Assembly (NCBI RefSeq): GCF_008274585.1
Contig: NZ_VTRT01000004.1
Location: 186,001 to 250,000, forward strand
Length of the DNA stretch: 64,000 bases
Direction of reading: 5' to 3'
Source of the DNA: Pedobacter sp. BS3
GTDB taxonomy: Bacteria > Bacteroidota > Bacteroidia > Sphingobacteriales > Sphingobacteriaceae
In this document: in pieces, positions 5,800 through 61,647 of the stretch
Numbering within the stretch: position 1 is the stretch's first letter
How the letters are laid out: each line of letters begins with the position of its first letter
The notes under the pieces: generated by a model
The model's database searches: none
Told to the model about the DNA's origin: nothing
The model's input: only the letters and a program-made list of their open reading frames with translations
Program-made: the position numbers and the translations under genes

Positions 5800-7542
5800 T
5801 TATTTTAACCTGATCTCACTTACGCTGCATCCCTGTGGCACCATCGGGAAAACATTATTTTCTTTGGTAACAGTTACTTCGAGCAGGTAAGAGCCCTGAT
5901 GATTTAACATGGTCTGCAATGCTGCTTCGAGATCTTTGCGATCTGAAATGCTGTTACCGTCAATTTTGTATGCTTTTGCCAGGGCTACAAAATCAGGACT
6001 TTCGATATCTACAAATGAATACCGGCGATCGTTGAACAGCTCCTGCCATTGCCGTACCATGCCCAGGAAGTGATTATTGAGGATAAGTATTTTCACATCG
6101 ATGCCGGTTTGCATGATGGTTCCAAGTTCCTGTAAAGTCATCTGGAAGCCACCGTCGCCAATTACAGCGACTACCGTACGGTTAGGTGCGCCGAACTTAG
6201 CGCCGATAGCCGCCGGAAGTGCAAAGCCCATTGTGCCTAATCCGCCGCTGGTAACATTGCTGCGGGTTTGATTAAATTTGGCATAGCGGCAGGCCACCAT
6301 CTGGTGCTGGCCAACATCGGTTACAATCACAGCATCGCCTTTGGTCAATTTGTTGAGCTTGTCAATCACTTCGCCCATGGTCATCTCCCCGGTTTGCGGA
6401 TGCAATTCCTTCCGGATAACCGCCTCAATTTCCTGCTGCTCATAATCCCTGAACTTTTGTAGCCATTCGGGATGTTCTTTTTTCTCAACCAGCCTGGTCA
6501 GCAAAGGCAGTGTTTCCTTGCAATCGCCCCATACCGGAACGGTTGTTTGTACGTTTTTGTCGATCTCCGCCGGATCAATATCCAGGTGGATCACCTGTGC
6601 CTGCCTGGCGTATTTGTCTAAACGGCCTGTTACACGGTCGTCAAAACGCATGCCTACGGCTATCAGCACGTCGCATTCGTTGGTCAAAACGTTAGGGCCG
6701 TAGTTACCGTGCATGCCCAGCATGCCCACGTTTAACGGATGGCCGGTTGGCAAAGCGCCTGCGCCCAGAACCGTCCAGGCTGAAGGAATACCGCTTTTTT
6801 CTACAAAGGCTTTGAACTCGGCTTCGGCGCCGCCTAAAATAACCCCCTGGCCAAACAACACGAACGGTTTCTTTGCTGCGTTGATCAGCTCGGCGGCACG
6901 CTCAATATATTCTTCGCGTACGTTGGGCTTTGGCCGGTAGCTGCGTATGTGATTACAAGGCGTATATCCTTTATAGTTAAATTTCTGAACCTGGGCGTTC
7001 TTGGTAATATCGATCAATACCGGCCCGGGACGGCCGCTGCGGGCGATGTAGAATGCCTTGGCTATGGCTTCGGGAATTTCGCAGGCATCGGTTACCTGGT
7101 AATTCCATTTGGTTACCGGAGTGGTGATGTTGATAACATCCGTTTCCTGGAAAGCATCGGTTCCCAGCAGGTGCGCAAACACTTGTCCGGTAATACATAC
7201 TACCGGCGTGCTGTCTATCTGCGCATCGGCTAAACCGGTAACCAGGTTGGTTGCCCCGGGGCCGCTGGTGGCAAATACCACGCCTACCTTGCCGGAAGTA
7301 CGGGCATATCCCTGACCGGCATGGATGCCTCCCTGTTCATGACGGACTAAGATGTGGTTCACCTTATCACGATAATCGTAAAGCGCATCATAAATTGGCA
7401 TAATAGCACCGCCGGGATAGCCAAAAATAGTATCTGTCCCTTCAGCAAGAAGACACTCAATTACTGCCTGGCTGCCAGTCATCGTTTGAGCTTGTTCGGG
7501 CTGTGTTGAGGCTTCTTCTTTTTGTAATTCAAGGGTATTCAT
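5800..7542 (-). CDS. ilvB: Acetolactate synthase large (catalytic) subunit
   Basis: 580 residues, a thiamine diphosphate-dependent enzyme making acetolactate and acetohydroxybutyrate. The N-terminal PYR domain has GYPGGAIMPIYDAL and the catalytic Glu in HEQGGIHAGQGYAR. The central domain has the RFDDRVTGRLD segment, and the C-terminal PP domain has the GDGGFQMTLQELGT...NN ThDP motif. It is the third gene of the ilv operon, directly upstream of ilvN. Confidence 0.97.
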   Translation of the reverse strand: MNTLELQKEEASTQPEQAQTMTGSQAVIECLLAEGTDTIFGYPGGAIMPIYDALYDYRDKVNHILVRHEQGGIHAGQGYARTSGKVGVVFATSGPGATNLVTGLADAQIDSTPVVCITGQVFAHLLGTDAFQETDVINITTPVTKWNYQVTDACEIPEAIAKAFYIARSGRPGPVLIDITKNAQVQKFNYKGYTPCNHIRSYRPKPNVREEYIERAAELINAAKKPFVLFGQGVILGGAEAEFKAFVEKSGIPSAWTVLGAGALPTGHPLNVGMLGMHGNYGPNVLTNECDVLIAVGMRFDDRVTGRLDKYARQAQVIHLDIDPAEIDKNVQTTVPVWGDCKETLPLLTRLVEKKEHPEWLQKFRDYEQQEIEAVIRKELHPQTGEMTMGEVIDKLNKLTKGDAVIVTDVGQHQMVACRYAKFNQTRSNVTSGGLGTMGFALPAAIGAKFGAPNRTVVAVIGDGGFQMTLQELGTIMQTGIDVKILILNNHFLGMVRQWQELFNDRRYSFVDIESPDFVALAKAYKIDGNSISDRKDLEAALQTMLNHQGSYLLEVTVTKENNVFPMVPQGCSVSEIRLK

Positions 7543-24157: not shown

Positions 24158-24194
24158 GGCTTAAGTTAGTCCATTCCCTGCTAAAACTTAAGCC
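24158..24194. repeat. REP-like hairpin, copy A
   Basis: GGCTTAAGTTAG, an 11-bp loop, then CTAAAACTTAAGCC: 10-bp palindromic arms (GGCTTAAGTT / AACTTAAGCC). Two further copies at 32511-32555 and 35670-35714 flank a broken RAYT transposase gene. The surrounding gap 23973-24645 has no convincing ORF; 24195-24360 is GC-rich, unassigned and looks repeat-like, and 24361-24645 is AT-rich upstream DNA. Confidence 0.75.
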
Positions 24195-24578
24195 GGATCG
24201 GGGTGGGAATATTTTGCACAGAATGAAGTTAGCTAAACCGGATGAAAGCGGATACCGGCCTGTGACTAAGGCCCCCACGAGGTTTCGGGGCAGGTTGCAG
24301 GCGTATGAGCGCACAGCCGGACTACCGGAGCCAAAGTGATGCCGGCCCTGCTTTTCAACATAACATTTGCTTTAACCGGCCTTAACGGGATATGATGCTT
24401 ATTGCTTATTACAAGCCTGCAGATTTTTCCGTATATACTAAAACAGTTTCCAAGTAGTGAATTTTTAATAATTTAGCGTACTGATAATTAATAATTATTC
24501 AAAATACACGTATTTTTATTTAGACATTGGCTGGCGGTGTTAACATTATAGAACGCAATACAATATCGATATCCTCTT

Positions 24579-27498: not shown

Positions 27499-27808
27499 AG
27501 GTGAAAAGGTGGAAGGCGGAAGGTTTAAGGCGTGAGGTAGCTGATGGCTGATGGTTCATAGTTCATAGTCCCGAAGTCGGGAAAGTTGAGCGCAGCGAAA
27601 TCCCGATTATTCGGGGTCAGAAAAGACCGGGAGCGGGAAAGGTAGGAGGCGGAAGGTTTAAGGTGATTTACGAGTTACGATTTTAGATTTACGAATTTTA
27701 GAGACGAGAACATAGAAGCAAGAAACAAGATAAAGAGCACAAGCTGCTCCCTCTTCCGCCAACTGGCGGAGCTGGGGTGAGGCTATAAAGCAACTAACCA
27801 ACTAACAA
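27499..27808. repeat. Degenerate intergenic repeat block
   Basis: About 300 bp of low-complexity DNA between converging genes. It repeats motifs of the 13135-13440 block in the same order (GGTTCATAGTTCATAG, AAAAGACCGGGAGCGGGAAA, GGCGGAAGGTTTAAGG) and ends in a palindrome related to the ilv/atp repeats (27750-27786, GCTCC...GGAGC with a GGGGTGAGGC tail). No ORF is supported. Confidence 0.6.
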
Positions 27809-32458: not shown

Positions 32459-32510
32459 TGCCTAAGTTAAAAGTAAAAAGTAAAAACCCGGCACAGGCTC
32501 GCCGGAATCT

Positions 32511-32555
32511 GGCTTAAGTTTTAGTGTGGATTGTGTGTTGCGCCTAACTTAAGCC
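32511..32555. repeat. REP-like hairpin, copy B (downstream of the RAYT remnant)
   Basis: GGCTTAAGTT / AACTTAAGCC arms with a 25-bp interior. In the same orientation as the RAYT gene it reads GGCTTAAGTTAG...CTAAAACTTAAGCC, like copy A. It lies 26 bp past the RAYT C-terminal remnant. Confidence 0.75.
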
Positions 32556-32581
32556 TTCAAATAGCATGAAGTTTATCAACT

Positions 32582-32887
32582 TCAATATAAAAATTCAATA
32601 TCTATTTTTCCCTTACTGCCTGCGTGGTCAATGGCGCTGCTGTAGCAATAATGTTCCGGTGCATATACCAGGCCTTCTTTTACCGGATTGGCATGAATAT
32701 ATTCCAGCCGTTGCCTTGCCATTTCCGGCGTGCTTAGTTGTATAGGCCGGTTATCCTGTTGCCAGAGCTGGAAGTCTTTATTCTTCGGGTTCCTTTTGCC
32801 AGCCGTATCCATAGCATCTGAAGGCTTTGCGAAGTGGCAAACTTTTATATGAGCTTTCAATCGAAGCTCTTTGTCTTCATTCCACAA
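32582..32887 (-). pseudogene. REP-associated tyrosine transposase (RAYT), C-terminal remnant
   Basis: The last 75 or so residues (KRNPKNKDFQLWQQDNRPIQ, then RLEYIHANPVKEGLVY, YCYSSAIDHAG) match the C-terminus of Bacteroidota RAYT/IS200-like proteins (Y1_Tnp). The first 25 or so open codons are not recognisably RAYT. The HUH histidine motif and catalytic tyrosine region are absent. The N-terminal portion lies about 2.6 kb away at 35495-35620 on the same strand, with a restriction-modification cassette between them. Confidence 0.82.
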
Positions 32888-32928
32888 AATTCTTCTTGCT
32901 ATATACTAACACCCCCATCGGTAGGATT

Positions 32929-33870
32929 TTATTTTACTACAAATATGATATCCGTTAAAGCTGTAAATATTTGCGATTTTCCTTTGTAGCCAAACATAAC
33001 TTTCAAGTCGTCGATTTTTTTGTTCTTGAAATTGTCTAAATAGTTCATAATTGTTGGCTTCAAAAGCTCAAGATTTCTTTTCAGCTTCCAGGAATTGTTA
33101 AAGTTGTCTGTATCAACAAGCACAAGGAACAAACGGTTTTCTGAACCGAAACGCATTTCGCCCTGATTTTCGTAAAGCCATTTTGCCAATATTTTTGGGT
33201 TGTCTTGCACTTCTTTCAGAATCTCAAGTTTCTCGTTTTTCAACGTCGTCAAAATGCTATTACAAAACTCGTCATTCTTATCCTTCATCTTTTCAACAAT
33301 TTCATAAAAGATGTCCGTGTCTTTCGCTTTTTTATCAAACGTTATTTTTGCTTCTGTCGCTTTACTTTTCAGAAAAGTAAGTTCAACAGGCAATCCTCTT
33401 TCTTTCCGTTTAAACTTAATGTATTCGGCAGGTAAATACGTTACTTTCAAATCAAAAGGAACATTGCTGATGAAGAAATCAACGCTTTTGATTTGTCCGA
33501 CTGTTGGCAAAACCGTTGGGTGCGATTTGAAGATATGTTCAATCAAAATACTGCTCCAATGGTTATACCAGCTATTTAAAACATATCCCTGAACAGCAAC
33601 GTGAATTTCCGTTTCAAACTTTGAAACGAGTGTGTCGTAAGATTTATGAACTTTTACGTAGCGACTTACCAAATACTTATCCAATGAGTTTTGATAGTCG
33701 CCACCCCAATCAAAGTTTTTCAACTTATACAATTCCGAAACCAATTGCTCGGTATTGAGTTTTGAAGCCTGGATTTTGTTTTTCTCTTGGATGTAAGCAT
33801 TTAAAAGCTGGTGAGAATTACCTGCATTTTCACAAAGCAAATCAAAGAGCTCAATAAACTGTTTTTCCAA
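32929..33870 (-). CDS. Type II restriction endonuclease (PD-(D/E)XK-like)
   Basis: 313 residues. A central segment SVDFFISNVPFDLKVTYLP has the D...DxK spacing of a PD-(D/E)XK nuclease core (Asp in VDF, then Asp-Leu-Lys). The N-terminal third is helical and the C-terminal end (ALTDIIFVVK) is hydrophobic. The assignment rests on this motif and its position as the last gene of an operon with an adenine methyltransferase. Base composition is clearly more AT-rich than the flanks. It starts 6 bp after the 52-residue ORF. Recognition site unknown; expected to match that of the adjacent methyltransferase. Confidence 0.78.
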   Translation of the reverse strand: MEKQFIELFDLLCENAGNSHQLLNAYIQEKNKIQASKLNTEQLVSELYKLKNFDWGGDYQNSLDKYLVSRYVKVHKSYDTLVSKFETEIHVAVQGYVLNSWYNHWSSILIEHIFKSHPTVLPTVGQIKSVDFFISNVPFDLKVTYLPAEYIKFKRKERGLPVELTFLKSKATEAKITFDKKAKDTDIFYEIVEKMKDKNDEFCNSILTTLKNEKLEILKEVQDNPKILAKWLYENQGEMRFGSENRLFLVLVDTDNFNNSWKLKRNLELLKPTIMNYLDNFKNKKIDDLKVMFGYKGKSQIFTALTDIIFVVK

Positions 33871-33876
33871 AGCAGT

Positions 33877-34035
33877 TTATTTGAGTGTGATATTATTTTG
33901 TAAAACAAACTCCGCTATTAATTCTTTACGAATAATTGATTTTGCTTTCAGCCACAATAAGCCAATATTGTCTGTGCTAAATTCTTCAAGTTGTTCACTT
34001 TCGTGCAGTCGCTTCCAATAATTAAAATCTTTCAT
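33877..34035 (-). CDS. 52-residue protein between methyltransferase and endonuclease
   Basis: ATG at 34035 lies inside the end of the methyltransferase gene (14-bp overlap), and the stop is 6 bp before the endonuclease start. It begins MKDFNYWKRLHESEQLEEF and is mostly helical and charged. No family recognised. The overlap implies translational coupling, so it is probably expressed; it could be a small regulatory or accessory subunit of the restriction-modification system, or a linker that couples nuclease translation to the methyltransferase. Confidence 0.55.
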   Translation of the reverse strand: MKDFNYWKRLHESEQLEEFSTDNIGLLWLKAKSIIRKELIAEFVLQNNITLK

Positions 34036-35128
34036 TCACGGCTTCTTGTTCTGTTGTTGGGATAAAGTGTTTTTTCTTCGGTTTGCACACAAATAAAACT
34101 TCATGACTTCCGGCCACACTTCCCTTACCACCTCTGCCATTGTGATACGCTTTTGCTTCAATGGTTACTGCCCTGTATTTTGAAATTATCTTTGATAATG
34201 CTTCCACACTCGGATAACTTCTGTCGTTGTAGCTGATTAACCAATGCGGAATTTCCTGCGAATACTCAAATAGTTTTTCAAACGATGAAATAACATCACG
34301 TTTTTTGTCAAAGCCACTGAAACGTTGCGGTTCGTAACGTTTAATTCCGTTGACAAATTCTTTGTCTTTCCAATATTCCGTAAAGGTTTCCAGCAAATGA
34401 TAGAAACTTTGATAATCAGCGTGGCTGTCGCAATAAGGCGGGTCAAAATATGCCAGATCAACGTTTTCAAGTGTCGGCAACAAATCAAGAATATTTTGAT
34501 TGTAGCTTCGGTTGTCTTGCTTGTTGTCAAACACCGCATCATTGTATTTTGGCAATAAATCTTCAAAAATTTCTTTGATTGGTCTTATCAAACTTCTGTT
34601 GCGTTTAATGCGTTCGGGGTCGCTTGCGTATTTCAACGCTTGTGTATGTCCGAAATGCCCCATTGTTACTTTTCGTGTCATACTTCTGTTAATGATCGCG
34701 TAAGCCAGCGCCTGTTTGTGTAGCGTGCTCAACAAAGGAATGTTTGCCCGGAAATTGTCTAAAAACTCCGTTTCGGTTTCTTCAAAAAACACGTTTGTAA
34801 AAACGGATTTCATCAGTTGAAAAACTTCTTTATTTTTTGCAGATTGAAACAAAACTTCTAAATCTTCTTTTGTAATTTTTTCGCTTCTGTTTTCAACCAA
34901 TGCCAAACCAATTTGATTATTGAAATTCAAAAAGTCGTTTGTAATGGTTTGTAATCCCATTTGTTTAAATAAAAACGCAACCGACTGCGAACCTGCGAAA
35001 GCGTCCAAAGCCACATTTACATTTTCGGGAACAAACTTTTTAATCCATGCCAAATGCATGTGCTTTGCTCCCAAATATTGCGGTTCTGGAAATTTATGAT
35101 TGAAATATGTGTATTCTTCAAATAGCAT
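34022..35128 (-). CDS. D12-class DNA adenine N6-methyltransferase
   Basis: 368 residues from the ATG at 35128 (an upstream TTG two codons earlier is less likely). It shows the D12/Dam-type order: motif X QYLGAKHMHLAW, the SAM-binding motif I DAFAGSQSVAF, ITNDF, and the catalytic motif IV LAYFDPPYCDS. It methylates adenine, presumably at the same site cut by the downstream endonuclease. Dam relatives often use GATC, but the target recognition region here is not informative. The gene lies 38 bp after the KTSC gene in a four-gene minus-strand operon. Confidence 0.92.
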   Translation of the reverse strand: MLFEEYTYFNHKFPEPQYLGAKHMHLAWIKKFVPENVNVALDAFAGSQSVAFLFKQMGLQTITNDFLNFNNQIGLALVENRSEKITKEDLEVLFQSAKNKEVFQLMKSVFTNVFFEETETEFLDNFRANIPLLSTLHKQALAYAIINRSMTRKVTMGHFGHTQALKYASDPERIKRNRSLIRPIKEIFEDLLPKYNDAVFDNKQDNRSYNQNILDLLPTLENVDLAYFDPPYCDSHADYQSFYHLLETFTEYWKDKEFVNGIKRYEPQRFSGFDKKRDVISSFEKLFEYSQEIPHWLISYNDRSYPSVEALSKIISKYRAVTIEAKAYHNGRGGKGSVAGSHEVLFVCKPKKKHFIPTTEQEAVNERF

Positions 35129-35166
35129 TGTCAAGAATTTGTTTATCCAACTTGAGATTCGGAATA

Positions 35167-35355
35167 TTATCCTCTAATGTTAGCGTTAAAATACTTTCCA
35201 ATTGGATCGGCATTTCGCATATCATAATAAATACTTTTAGGAACGTCGTAATACTGCCAAACAGCACTACTATTGAACTCGACTTCCAATGTTGAAGTGT
35301 TGGAATCGTAACACAAACTTCTTATTATACTTGACTGAACGCTTTCTTTTTCCAT
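35167..35355 (-). CDS. KTSC-domain small protein
   Basis: 62 residues: VQSSIIRSLCYDSNTSTLEV, VWQYYDVPKSIYYDM, ADPIGKYFNANIRG, the full pattern of the KTSC domain (named from the C-terminus of some lysyl-tRNA synthetases; nucleic-acid binding suspected). It is the first gene of the restriction-modification operon and has a GAGAA ribosome binding site right before its ATG. By position it could play the part of a controller protein, though it is not a helix-turn-helix C protein. Confidence 0.85.
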   Translation of the reverse strand: MEKESVQSSIIRSLCYDSNTSTLEVEFNSSAVWQYYDVPKSIYYDMRNADPIGKYFNANIRG

Positions 35356-35494
35356 TTCTCACAGTTTTTACATTGTATCGCTTAAGTCATTCTTTTGGAT
35401 GGACTATATGTGTCAAAAATGCAAAACAAATCCTCAAGTCGTTTTGAATGTTTCAATGAAGTTTTCAACATGTTAAGAAACCGTCAAGTTTCTA

Positions 35495-35620
35495 TTATGA
35501 AACATTACTCATGATAATATCTTTATACTCAGGTCTGCTCAAGGCGTCAACCCATTGCACCGTTGCAAAGGTTATAAAATGTATATCCTGATGGTCTGAT
35601 ATTTTATATTTTGAGGACAA
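35495..35620 (-). pseudogene. RAYT transposase, N-terminal remnant
   Basis: 41 codons from a TTG at 35620: SSKYKISDHQDIHFITFATV, then QWVDALSRPEYKDII, which is the conserved start of Bacteroidota RAYT proteins. It ends in two consecutive stops after MSNVS, where the homology stops. With the C-terminal piece at 32582-32887 it marks a RAYT gene interrupted by the restriction-modification cassette, with about 70 central residues missing. The interval 35356-35494 between it and the KTSC start should hold the cassette promoter, but no clear consensus was seen. Confidence 0.82.
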
Positions 35621-35669
35621 TTGGTTTTGTTTTGTGGAAAGAAAGTTACTAAAACTTTCTTGTATAACA

Positions 35670-35714
35670 GGCTTAAGTTGGGCCCGCCACAGACCCCTCA
35701 CTGAAACTTAAGCC
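35670..35714. repeat. REP-like hairpin, copy C (upstream of the RAYT remnant)
   Basis: GGCTTAAGTT, a 25-bp interior, AACTTAAGCC. It lies 50 bp upstream of the RAYT N-terminal remnant, mirroring copy B downstream of the C-terminal remnant. RAYT genes are typically bracketed by the REPs they act on. Confidence 0.75.
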
Positions 35715-35748
35715 AGGTAAATGCCAGATAAATGGTTTGTAGGGTGAA

Positions 35749-37738: not shown

Positions 37739-37879
37739 TTAGAAGCTGTTAAAAATGAAAAAGATAAGTTATACGGCGCTGCTGGTGGTGACAGCAGCGG
37801 CAGGAAGCTATGGACGGTGTCTTCACCGTCCATTAATTAAACCTGTAAAACCTTTATATAAAACTTAACAGCTTCTTAG
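37739..37879 (+). repeat. MITE-like palindromic element, copy 2
   Basis: About 141 bp with terminal inverted repeats (TTAGAAGCTGTTAA / TTAACAGCTTCTTA). It contains the hairpin CGCTGCTG...CAGCAGCG and a perfect 10-bp-arm hairpin at 37810-37833 (ATGGACGGTG tctt CACCGTCCAT), as in copy 1 at 286-431 in reverse orientation. One strand is open for 37 codons (37755-37868; begins MKKISYTALLVVTAAAGSYG, signal-peptide-like), but copy 1 reads differently, so this is probably not a gene. It lies 17 bp before the PUL regulator and may carry its promoter. Confidence 0.78.
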
Positions 37880-37896
37880 AGCATTGTAAATTAACC

Positions 37897-59866: not shown

Positions 59867-59935
59867 TAAATGCCCCATCAAAGGTGCGCAGGCTTATGTT
59901 TGCCTTTTTTTGACTTTTAACTTTTGAATTATTTT

Positions 59936-60730
59936 ATGTTCAGAACGATTTTTTTAATTGCTTTATTCCTTCAGCTATCCTTTCAAAAGGACATGTTCGG
60001 CCAGAATGCTGACTCCCCGCAAAAGGTAGTGCGCATCATGAGCTATAATACCCATCACGCCAATCCGCCATCAAAGCCCGATTTTATAGATATCGATGCC
60101 ATTGCACGTGTAATTAATGAAGCCAGGGCAGATATAGTCGCTTTGCAGGAAATTGATAAGAACACAAAGCGTAGCGGCAATATCGATGAAGCCAGACTAA
60201 TTGCAGAAAAAACAGGAATGCATTATCATTTCTTCAAAGCCATTGATTACGATGGCGGAGATTATGGGATTGCTATCCTGAGCCGTTATCCCTTAAAAAA
60301 GGTAAAATTATTGCCCTTGCCTCAGCAAATAAAAACCGAAGGCAGGGTGCTTAGTTATGCCACAGTTAAAGTTGGCAGGCAAAAAATCATATTTGCCAAT
60401 ACGCACCTGGATGCTTTGCGGACTGATGAGAACCGTAATGTGCAAATGCAGTTTATACTGAAACAGTTTGAAAATTCCAGCCTGCCAGTAATATTATGCG
60501 GTGATCTGAACAGTGTAGCAGGGTCTGAGGCAATCAATATGCTGGATAAGCAATTTAAGCGTACCTGCATAGACAATTGTCCCGGTACAGTACCACAAAC
60601 CAAGCCCCGTCGTACCATAGATTTTATTGCAACCAAAGGGCTGAGCTGGCCATTATCAGAATATAAAGTGATCGAAGAAACCTATGCATCAGACCACCGG
60701 CCAATAATGGCAACATTCAACCTGGAATAA
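59936..60730 (+). CDS. Secreted endonuclease/exonuclease/phosphatase-family enzyme (copy 1)
   Basis: 264 residues from the ATG at 59936. Signal peptide (FLIALFLQLSFQKD...FGQ). The EEP fold (DNase I-like) shows its metal and catalytic motifs: MSYNTHHANP, DIVALQEIDKNT, FANTHLDAL, LCGDLNSV and the terminal YASDHRPI (catalytic His). Substrates may be phosphodiesters or sugar phosphates. It is a close paralogue of the next gene and sits between DUF5689 and GH89 genes. Confidence 0.88.
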   Translation: MFRTIFLIALFLQLSFQKDMFGQNADSPQKVVRIMSYNTHHANPPSKPDFIDIDAIARVINEARADIVALQEIDKNTKRSGNIDEARLIAEKTGMHYHFFKAIDYDGGDYGIAILSRYPLKKVKLLPLPQQIKTEGRVLSYATVKVGRQKIIFANTHLDALRTDENRNVQMQFILKQFENSSLPVILCGDLNSVAGSEAINMLDKQFKRTCIDNCPGTVPQTKPRRTIDFIATKGLSWPLSEYKVIEETYASDHRPIMATFNLE

Positions 60731-60831
60731 AATAAAATATATAGTATATCAACAGAAATTACTTTTTAACGGCTTAAATGCGGAAGTTCATTCCTTCGGG
60801 CTATATTTATAGCTCATTAAAACATAAACAG

Positions 60832-61647
60832 ATGAAAATCATTTGCTCCTACTGTATAGCAGCTTTATTATTACTCGCTTCCTGTTCGCATAAAGTTATC
60901 ACGGCAGGTAAAACAGGCAGCACTGCTGCCAATGCTGACCAGCTCAAAGTGCTTACATACAATATCCATCATGCCAATCCGCCGTCAAAGCCCGGTTTTA
61001 TTGACCTGGATGCGGTGGCACAGGTTATTAAAAATGCAGATGCTGATCTGATCGCATTGCAGGAAGTCGATAAATTCACCAAACGTTCGGAAGGGGTAGA
61101 CGAGGCAAAAGTCATTGCCGAAAAAACCGGGCTTAACTATCAGTTCTTTAAAGCCATTGACTACGATGGTGGCGAATATGGACTGGCGATATTAAGCAAA
61201 CAACCGTTAGAAGATACAAAACAAATAGCGCTTCCAAAAGCACAGGAAAAAGCTGAAAACCGTATTCTGGCTTACGCCGATATTAGCCTGCCGGGAAATA
61301 AGAAAATCACATTTGCCTGCACCCATCTGGATGTACAAAGCGATGCCAGCCGGGTGATGCAGGTAAAAACCATTTTGAACGAATTTAAAGAAGCAAAACA
61401 CCCGGTAATCCTCTGCGGCGATTTGAATAGCGTAGCCAATACAGAGGCCATCCGTTTATTAGACGGGCAATTTAAACGTACCTGCATTGAGAATTGCCCC
61501 GGCACTATCCCGGCAACCAGACCTAATCGTACCATTGATTATATCGCCGTTAAAAATGCCGGTTGGGAGATTAGCGAATACCGTGTCGTTGAGGAAACGT
61601 ATGCTTCAGATCACCGGCCTGTATTAACGATTTTTAAAACCAAGTGA
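60832..61647 (+). CDS. Endonuclease/exonuclease/phosphatase-family lipoprotein (copy 2)
   Basis: 271 residues from the ATG at 60832 (upstream codons lack a signal peptide). Lipobox LLLLASCSHK. EEP motifs are all present: LTYNIHHANPPSKPGFIDLD, LIALQEVDKFTKRS, CTHLDVQ, LCGDLNSVAN and ASDHRPVL. It is clearly homologous along its whole length to the preceding gene, indicating tandem duplication, but this copy is a lipoprotein whereas copy 1 has an ordinary signal peptide. The two may work on opposite sides of the outer membrane or on different substrates. Confidence 0.88.
   Translation: MKIICSYCIAALLLLASCSHKVITAGKTGSTAANADQLKVLTYNIHHANPPSKPGFIDLDAVAQVIKNADADLIALQEVDKFTKRSEGVDEAKVIAEKTGLNYQFFKAIDYDGGEYGLAILSKQPLEDTKQIALPKAQEKAENRILAYADISLPGNKKITFACTHLDVQSDASRVMQVKTILNEFKEAKHPVILCGDLNSVANTEAIRLLDGQFKRTCIENCPGTIPATRPNRTIDYIAVKNAGWEISEYRVVEETYASDHRPVLTIFKTK

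What the first reader, a model, noticed from the sequence alone, without database searches (positions are those of the whole stretch)
32511..35714. Restriction-modification cassette inserted in a REP-flanked RAYT transposase gene
The two ends of a RAYT gene (N-terminal 35495-35620, C-terminal 32582-32887, same strand) are separated by a four-gene AT-rich cassette: KTSC, D12 adenine methyltransferase, 52-residue ORF, endonuclease. REP-like hairpins with identical GGCTTAAGTT/AACTTAAGCC arms lie outside both ends. About 70 central RAYT residues, including the HUH motif, are replaced. So a defence system has used, or been dropped into, a REP/RAYT locus. This suggests RAYT/REP sites act as landing places for defence genes; the mechanism (REP-guided insertion, recombination between REPs, or chance) is open.
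Basis: partly seen in the sequence, partly recalled or inferred. Interest (0 to 1): 0.8.

Follow-up and report, generated by a model that had tools for sequence, protein, structure and literature searches.

The report
Restriction genes inside a broken RAYT
A piece of foreign DNA carrying a restriction-modification gene pair (its cutting enzyme now itself broken by a stop codon) sits inside a dead REP-associated transposase gene, but the same gene pair sits in unrelated places in about 80 other genomes, so this looks like an ordinary chance insertion and not a dedicated landing site.

Summary
Two collinear RAYT pieces (model positions 2-38 and 104-176 of 177) lie between two inverted GGCTTAAGTT/AACTTAAGCC REPs. 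That REP occurs in only 3 of 151 family genomes, and the other two also carry a close RAYT relative: one near-full gene with REPs downstream, one N-terminal fragment with the same upstream REP. So the two pieces are one dead REPtron whose HUH segment is missing. Between them lies a foreign operon segment. The "four-gene cassette" is really KTSC + adenine methyltransferase + ONE predicted endonuclease: the "52-residue ORF" and the "endonuclease" are two parts of a 368-codon gene split by an in-frame TAA (33877-33879). Methyltransferase and nuclease are 87/84/68% identical in DNA to copies in other Bacteroidota. The generalisation fails: none of 80 loci encoding this nuclease has a RAYT or this REP in its flanks (0.62 Mb), and in one genome the pair sits between pth and holB where 17 congeners are empty. 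Best explanation: a mobile type II R-M operon inserted by illegitimate recombination into a REPtron, with or after loss of about 65 RAYT codons; its nuclease was then inactivated. No empty orthologous site was found to date the deletion or prove the mechanism.

The parts
32511..32555 (+). REP hairpin, downstream end of the RAYT locus (5' head CTG before GGCTTAAGTT)
32582..32815 (-). RAYT C-terminal piece with the catalytic-tyrosine motif (Y-IHA-NP); stop codon at 32582-32584
   Evidence: HMM 104-176, E 4e-27; NF047646 partial; 63% identical to the G012 RAYT
32816..32926 (.). about 110 nt of unknown origin between the RAYT C piece and the R-M genes; contains a TTTGCGAAGTGGCAAA palindrome, found in no other locus held
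   Evidence: no own-genome match; palindrome
32929..34035 (-). predicted type II restriction endonuclease gene, 368 codons plus stop, broken by an in-frame TAA at 33877-33879 (52 + 313 residue ORFs)
   Evidence: alignments to intact copies; stop codon; invariant E166, D186, D195-L-K197 in 31 relatives
34022..35131 (-). D12-class DNA adenine methyltransferase, intact
   Evidence: PF02086 E 3.5e-16; PADLOC MTase_II PDLC03385 E 5e-50; 92% identical to two relatives
35167..35355 (-). KTSC-domain gene, particular to this copy of the operon
   Evidence: PF13619 E 1.5e-21; not found in the 80 other loci
35402..35474 (-). promoter-like block of the foreign operon; in G183 the matching block ends just upstream of an XRE-type regulator gene
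   Evidence: 75% over 73 nt, E 1e-7
35475..35500 (.). right junction between foreign DNA and the RAYT N piece, located to 26 nt
   Evidence: end of the G183 homology and end of the RAYT HMM match
35501..35620 (-). RAYT N-terminal piece
   Evidence: HMM 2-38, E 4e-9; 84% over 32 aa to the G001 fragment
35670..35714 (-). REP hairpin, upstream end of the RAYT locus, inverted relative to the left one; same position as in G001

Best explanation
A REPtron (REP, RAYT gene, inverted REP) was interrupted by a horizontally acquired type II R-M operon segment of about 2.6 kb (promoter block, KTSC gene, adenine methyltransferase, endonuclease). It most likely entered by illegitimate recombination that removed, or followed the loss of, about 65 RAYT codons including the HUH motif. 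The RAYT is dead, and its ten GGCTTAAGTT hairpins in this genome are orphans. The R-M pair spreads independently of RAYTs. After arrival a nonsense mutation broke the nuclease, leaving an intact, probably orphan methyltransferase. Shown: same RAYT/REP family on both sides, foreign origin and modular nature of the gene pair, broken nuclease, right junction within 26 nt. Inferred: one insertion event, the illegitimate mechanism, loss of function of both proteins.
For: Non-overlapping collinear RAYT pieces between inverted REPs; RAYTs flanked by two inverted REPs are the published arrangement (PMC2817692). The REP occurs in 3 of 151 family genomes; of the other two, G012 has a near-full RAYT with four REPs downstream and G001 an N fragment with the same upstream REP. 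R-M pair 87/84/68% identical in DNA to G183/G229/G227, with similarity ending at the methyltransferase start and nuclease stop in different contexts. In G229 it lies between pth and holB, contiguous in 17 congeners. Insert 35.8% GC, single copy in the genome. Promoter block shared with G183 fixes the right junction. In-frame TAA. R-M units moving without any known mobile element are described (PMC3874152).
Against: No empty orthologous site: the genus-mate lacks the region. No target duplication found. The 110 nt at the left junction are unexplained. One G012 RAYT (L028) has lost about the same internal segment with no insert, so the deletion may be older than the R-M arrival.
Confidence: 0.8

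Rival explanations
1. A sub-version of the best explanation: the RAYT had already lost its central segment, and the R-M operon landed later in a pseudogene with no selective cost.
For: L028 in G012 lacks HMM positions 54-103 with no insert, and in L031 only positions 104-176 are found. Truncated RAYT pieces occur in several relatives. G001 keeps only the N end of this RAYT.
Against: Nothing specific. The foreign DNA abuts the N piece within 26 nt, which is also what one insertion-deletion event would give.
Confidence: 0.4
2. REP/RAYT activity captured the operon: RAYT cleavage at REPs or inside its own gene opened the site (REP-guided insertion).
For: RAYT/TnpAREP enzymes cleave and rejoin REP sequences (PMC6006769). 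Three RAYT C pieces start at HMM position 104 (window, L028, L031).
Against: The foreign DNA ends lie inside the RAYT, roughly 200 nt or more from the REPs. No REP or RAYT in any of 80 other loci of the nuclease. No obvious defence gene at the REP loci read in this genome.
Confidence: 0.04
3. The R-M unit arrived as a cassette with flanking repeats (integron-like cassette or long target duplication) that were later lost here.
For: Four other copies have 116-375 nt direct repeats on both sides (L080, L087, L121, L130). A 132-nt hairpin element bounded by GCATAAC/GTTATGC follows the L066 copy.
Against: No such repeat here. Most of the 42 testable copies lack them. The attC-like screen is barely above its shuffled control (4 against 2).
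Confidence: 0.12
4. Assembly artefact or chimera.
For: Draft genome of 27 contigs; reads not available.
Against: The locus lies inside a 445-kb contig. Both RAYT pieces, both REPs and the R-M genes are coherent. The R-M segment is single copy, so not a collapsed repeat.
Confidence: 0.03

Closest known systems
REP-associated tyrosine transposase (RAYT/TnpAREP), Bacteroidetes-type REPtrons (subclass 2.6 / RAYT group 5 of PMC6006769)
   Same: Y1 HUH family, Y---NP motif, gene between two inverted hairpins with copies elsewhere in the genome
   Different: Here the gene is split, lacks the HUH segment and is presumably inactive; the subclass assignment itself was not tested
Type II R-M systems that move without a known mobile element (reviewed in PMC3874152)
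   Same: Adjacent methyltransferase and nuclease genes in unrelated contexts across phyla; some copies with long flanking repeats
   Different: No target duplication at this copy; the insertion lies within a gene and coincides with a gap in it; nuclease broken by a stop codon
Flavobacteriales MAG SJ571 copy (G183, L056/L065)
   Same: 87% DNA identity over methyltransferase and nuclease; related promoter block
   Different: XRE regulator and three further genes in place of KTSC; intact nuclease; no RAYT

Membership tests
RAYT / REPtron | RAYT sequence on both sides, collinear and non-overlapping | tested here: met
   HMM 2-38 and 104-176, same strand
[quoted passage not shown]
   48-nt inverted arms at 32509-32556 and 35669-35716
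RAYT / REPtron | Cognate REP copies elsewhere in the genome, found together with the RAYT | tested here: met
   10 in the genome; REP in 3 of 151 family genomes, the two others also holding this RAYT type
RAYT / REPtron (functional) | Intact HUH motif and catalytic tyrosine | tested here: not met
   HUH segment absent (model positions 39-103), tyrosine kept
Type II R-M system | DNA methyltransferase | tested here: met
   PF02086 and PDLC03385
Type II R-M system | Linked endonuclease gene | tested here: inconclusive
   The nuclease gene has a related methyltransferase directly upstream in 47 of 80 loci; no Pfam/PADLOC family; invariant E166/D186/D195-x-K197 on a helix-strand-strand core is PD-(D/E)XK-like, an inference; no significant fold match
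Type II R-M system (functional) | Intact nuclease reading frame | tested here: not met
   TAA at 33877-33879
Type II R-M system (functional) | Sequence-specific cleavage and matching methylation | not testable with these tools
   needs biochemistry or a methylome
Defence landing site at RAYT/REP loci | Recurrent association of defence genes with RAYT or REP | tested here: not met
   0 of 80 nuclease loci with RAYT or REP in the flanks; only this R-M family was surveyed

The most novel reading that the evidence does not exclude
RAYT genes are a preferred entry point for foreign DNA because the RAYT's own single-strand cleavage breaks its gene or the adjacent REPs, so that defence genes are captured in REPtrons in Bacteroidota.
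Probability: 0.04. Interest if true: 0.6.

Novelty: new member of a known kind. Interest (0 to 1): 0.27.

Why it matters
It is a clear example of a REPtron killed in place, with its cognate REPs left as orphans, and of an R-M operon that was itself broken after arrival. It gives a dead-RAYT genome in which the fate of orphan REPs could be followed. It does not show a new defence mechanism or a dedicated integration site.

Tried and rejected
Looked for an empty orthologous site: the genus-mate G001 lacks the left neighbour, and synteny resumes only at about 37.1 kb; a family-wide search with a right-hand neighbour gene gave only distant homologues. Looked for the origin of 32816-32926 and 35130-35497: only the 73-nt promoter block matched. 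Considered the 13-nt exact repeat CTTCAAATAGCAT at 32555-32567 and 35116-35128 as a target duplication: a second 13-mer repeat lies in the same 5 kb and one copy is inside the methyltransferase start, so probably chance. Plasmid collection: no match to the nuclease; viral contigs: one locus, 39% identical. Sequence search of solved structures with nuclease and methyltransferase profiles: nothing meaningful. Fold search of the nuclease model (mean pLDDT 91): no Foldseek match below E 0.4 and best VIA-align Z 5.2, to an unrelated protein. An XRE-type regulator as a constant part of the operon: found upstream in only 4 of 47 loci, one of them at 40% identity, so not constant. attC-like elements as the general mover: 4 hits against 2 in the shuffled control. 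Literature searches for RAYT together with restriction-modification gave no title or abstract describing such an insertion; only open-licence papers were searched, and the 2010 paper on R-M mobility was not held.

Full report
What is there. The window lies in a 4.8-Mb draft genome of 27 contigs, contig C22:186001-250000; its gene content and its relatives point to Bacteroidota. Reading from right to left on the minus strand there are: a REP hairpin (35670-35714), a RAYT N-terminal piece (35501-35620), a promoter-like block (35402-35474), a KTSC gene (35167-35355), a D12 adenine methyltransferase (34022-35131), a predicted endonuclease gene (32929-34035), about 110 nt of unknown origin, a RAYT C-terminal piece (32582-32815) and a second, inverted REP hairpin (32511-32555).

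The two RAYT pieces belong together. An HMM built from RAYTs of this and related genomes matches the window at model positions 2-38 (E 4e-9) and 104-176 of 177 (E 4e-27). The two matches are collinear, on the same strand and do not overlap. The closest relative of the C piece, 63% identical, is a near-full RAYT in genome G012, and the N piece is 67% identical over 24 residues to the same protein; a fragment in the genus-mate G001 is 84% identical to the N piece over 32 residues. The window's own C piece was among the sequences used to build the HMM, so its E-value is flattered; the NCBIfam hit (E 6e-10) and the blast matches are independent of that. The REP gives a further link. The exact hairpin GGCTTAAGTT...AACTTAAGCC occurs 10 times in this genome, with none for the reversed control pattern, and in only 3 of 151 genomes of the family: this one, G001 and G012, all of which carry this RAYT type. 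In G012 the REPs lie just downstream of the RAYT, and in G001 the REP lies just upstream of the fragment, the same positions as in the window. RAYT genes between two inverted REPs are the published arrangement (PMC2817692; PMC6006769). The missing segment, positions 39-103, contains the HUH-type motif; the tyrosine segment LEYIHANP remains. The enzyme is presumably inactive, and no close paralogue was found in the genome.

The insert. The 52-residue ORF and the 313-residue ORF are in the same frame and align end to end with a single 368-residue protein in relatives; an in-frame TAA at 33877-33879 separates them, and relatives have a sense codon there. The rest of the frame is undamaged, so the break is probably recent, or is a sequencing error. 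The nuclease has no convincing Pfam or PADLOC family and no significant fold match, but E166, D186 and D195-L-K197 are invariant in 31 relatives and lie on a helix-strand-strand arrangement in a confident model (mean pLDDT 91). That is typical of PD-(D/E)XK nucleases; this is my inference and was not tested.

The gene pair is mobile and independent of RAYTs. DNA similarity to genomes of other families (87%, 84%, 68%) covers exactly the two genes and stops at the methyltransferase start and the nuclease stop. The named relatives of the nuclease range over Bacteroidota, Planctomycetota, Cyanobacteria, Spirochaetota and others; in 47 of 80 loci a related methyltransferase is directly upstream. 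In genome G229 the pair sits in the short gap between pth and holB; 17 congeners have pth and holB next to each other with nothing between, an empty site. No RAYT piece and no GGCTTAAGTT REP lies in any of the 80 loci (0.62 Mb of flank). By a simple binomial bound this excludes a frequent association (upper 95% limit near 4% of loci) but not a weak one, because many contigs are short and only 24 loci have 1.5 kb on both sides. The separately fetched REP loci in this genome lie among ordinary genes, with no defence gene evident from reading the ORFs.

Junctions. A 73-nt block upstream of KTSC (35402-35474) is 75% identical to the region just upstream of the XRE-type regulator gene that leads the operon in G183 (E 1e-7 in 1.36 Mb of fetched loci). 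The foreign DNA therefore reaches to within 26 nt of the RAYT N piece. In G183 the regulator and three further genes stand where the window has KTSC, so the gene slot ahead of the methyltransferase is variable. On the left, the foreign similarity ends at the nuclease stop, and about 110 nt remain unassigned. The insert segment is single copy in the genome.

What happened, and what is not known. The simplest history is that a REPtron was interrupted by an R-M operon segment through illegitimate recombination, and that the nuclease then broke. Whether the loss of about 65 RAYT codons was part of the insertion is open: a RAYT in G012 lacks nearly the same segment with no insert (L028), and G001 keeps only the N end. 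No orthologous empty site was found. Movement of R-M units without a recognised mobile element, with short or long target duplications, is reviewed in PMC3874152. A few other copies of this pair have 116-375 nt flanking repeats; the window copy has none.

Verdict. The wider claim of REP/RAYT loci as landing places is not supported. It is a new example of known processes: R-M mobility, REPtron decay and nuclease loss.

Noticed in passing
window 24228-24366, 27514-27808, 37739-37892: Three intergenic stretches belong to repeat families of about 100-150 bp with roughly 10-20 partial copies each across the genome (76-95% identity).
   Followed up: no
window 24158-24194: A third GGCTTAAGTT hairpin with a shorter loop lies in the window, away from any RAYT.
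   Followed up: partly
L087 (116 nt), L121:4660-4821 and 7183-7344, L080 (122 nt), L130 (375 nt): Other copies of the methyltransferase-nuclease pair are flanked on both sides by 116-375 nt direct repeats; in L087 the repeat runs from GGCATAAC to CGTTAT, like an integron attC site.
   Followed up: partly
L066:7132-7263: A 132-nt hairpin element bounded by GCATAAC/GTTATGC directly follows the nuclease gene, attC-like.
   Followed up: partly
L028:1510-1886, L031:1504-1725, window 32597-32815: Three truncated RAYTs in different genomes have their C-terminal piece starting at the same model position (104); in L031 hairpin sequences directly precede it.
   Followed up: partly
L056:3542-5626: In the closest relative the R-M operon is led by an XRE regulator and three further genes (two TIR-like by eye, one with a membrane segment); the slot ahead of the methyltransferase differs from genome to genome.
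   Followed up: partly
L061:6721-7453 (G001): In the genus-mate the fragment of this RAYT lies directly upstream of an intact RAYT of another type; a hairpin-like GAGCGCTGCGCT element sits at the break.
   Followed up: no
window 59924-61647: Two adjacent, similar genes that look like endonuclease/exonuclease/phosphatase-family proteins (59924-60730 and 60778-61647) look like a tandem duplication (by eye).
   Followed up: no
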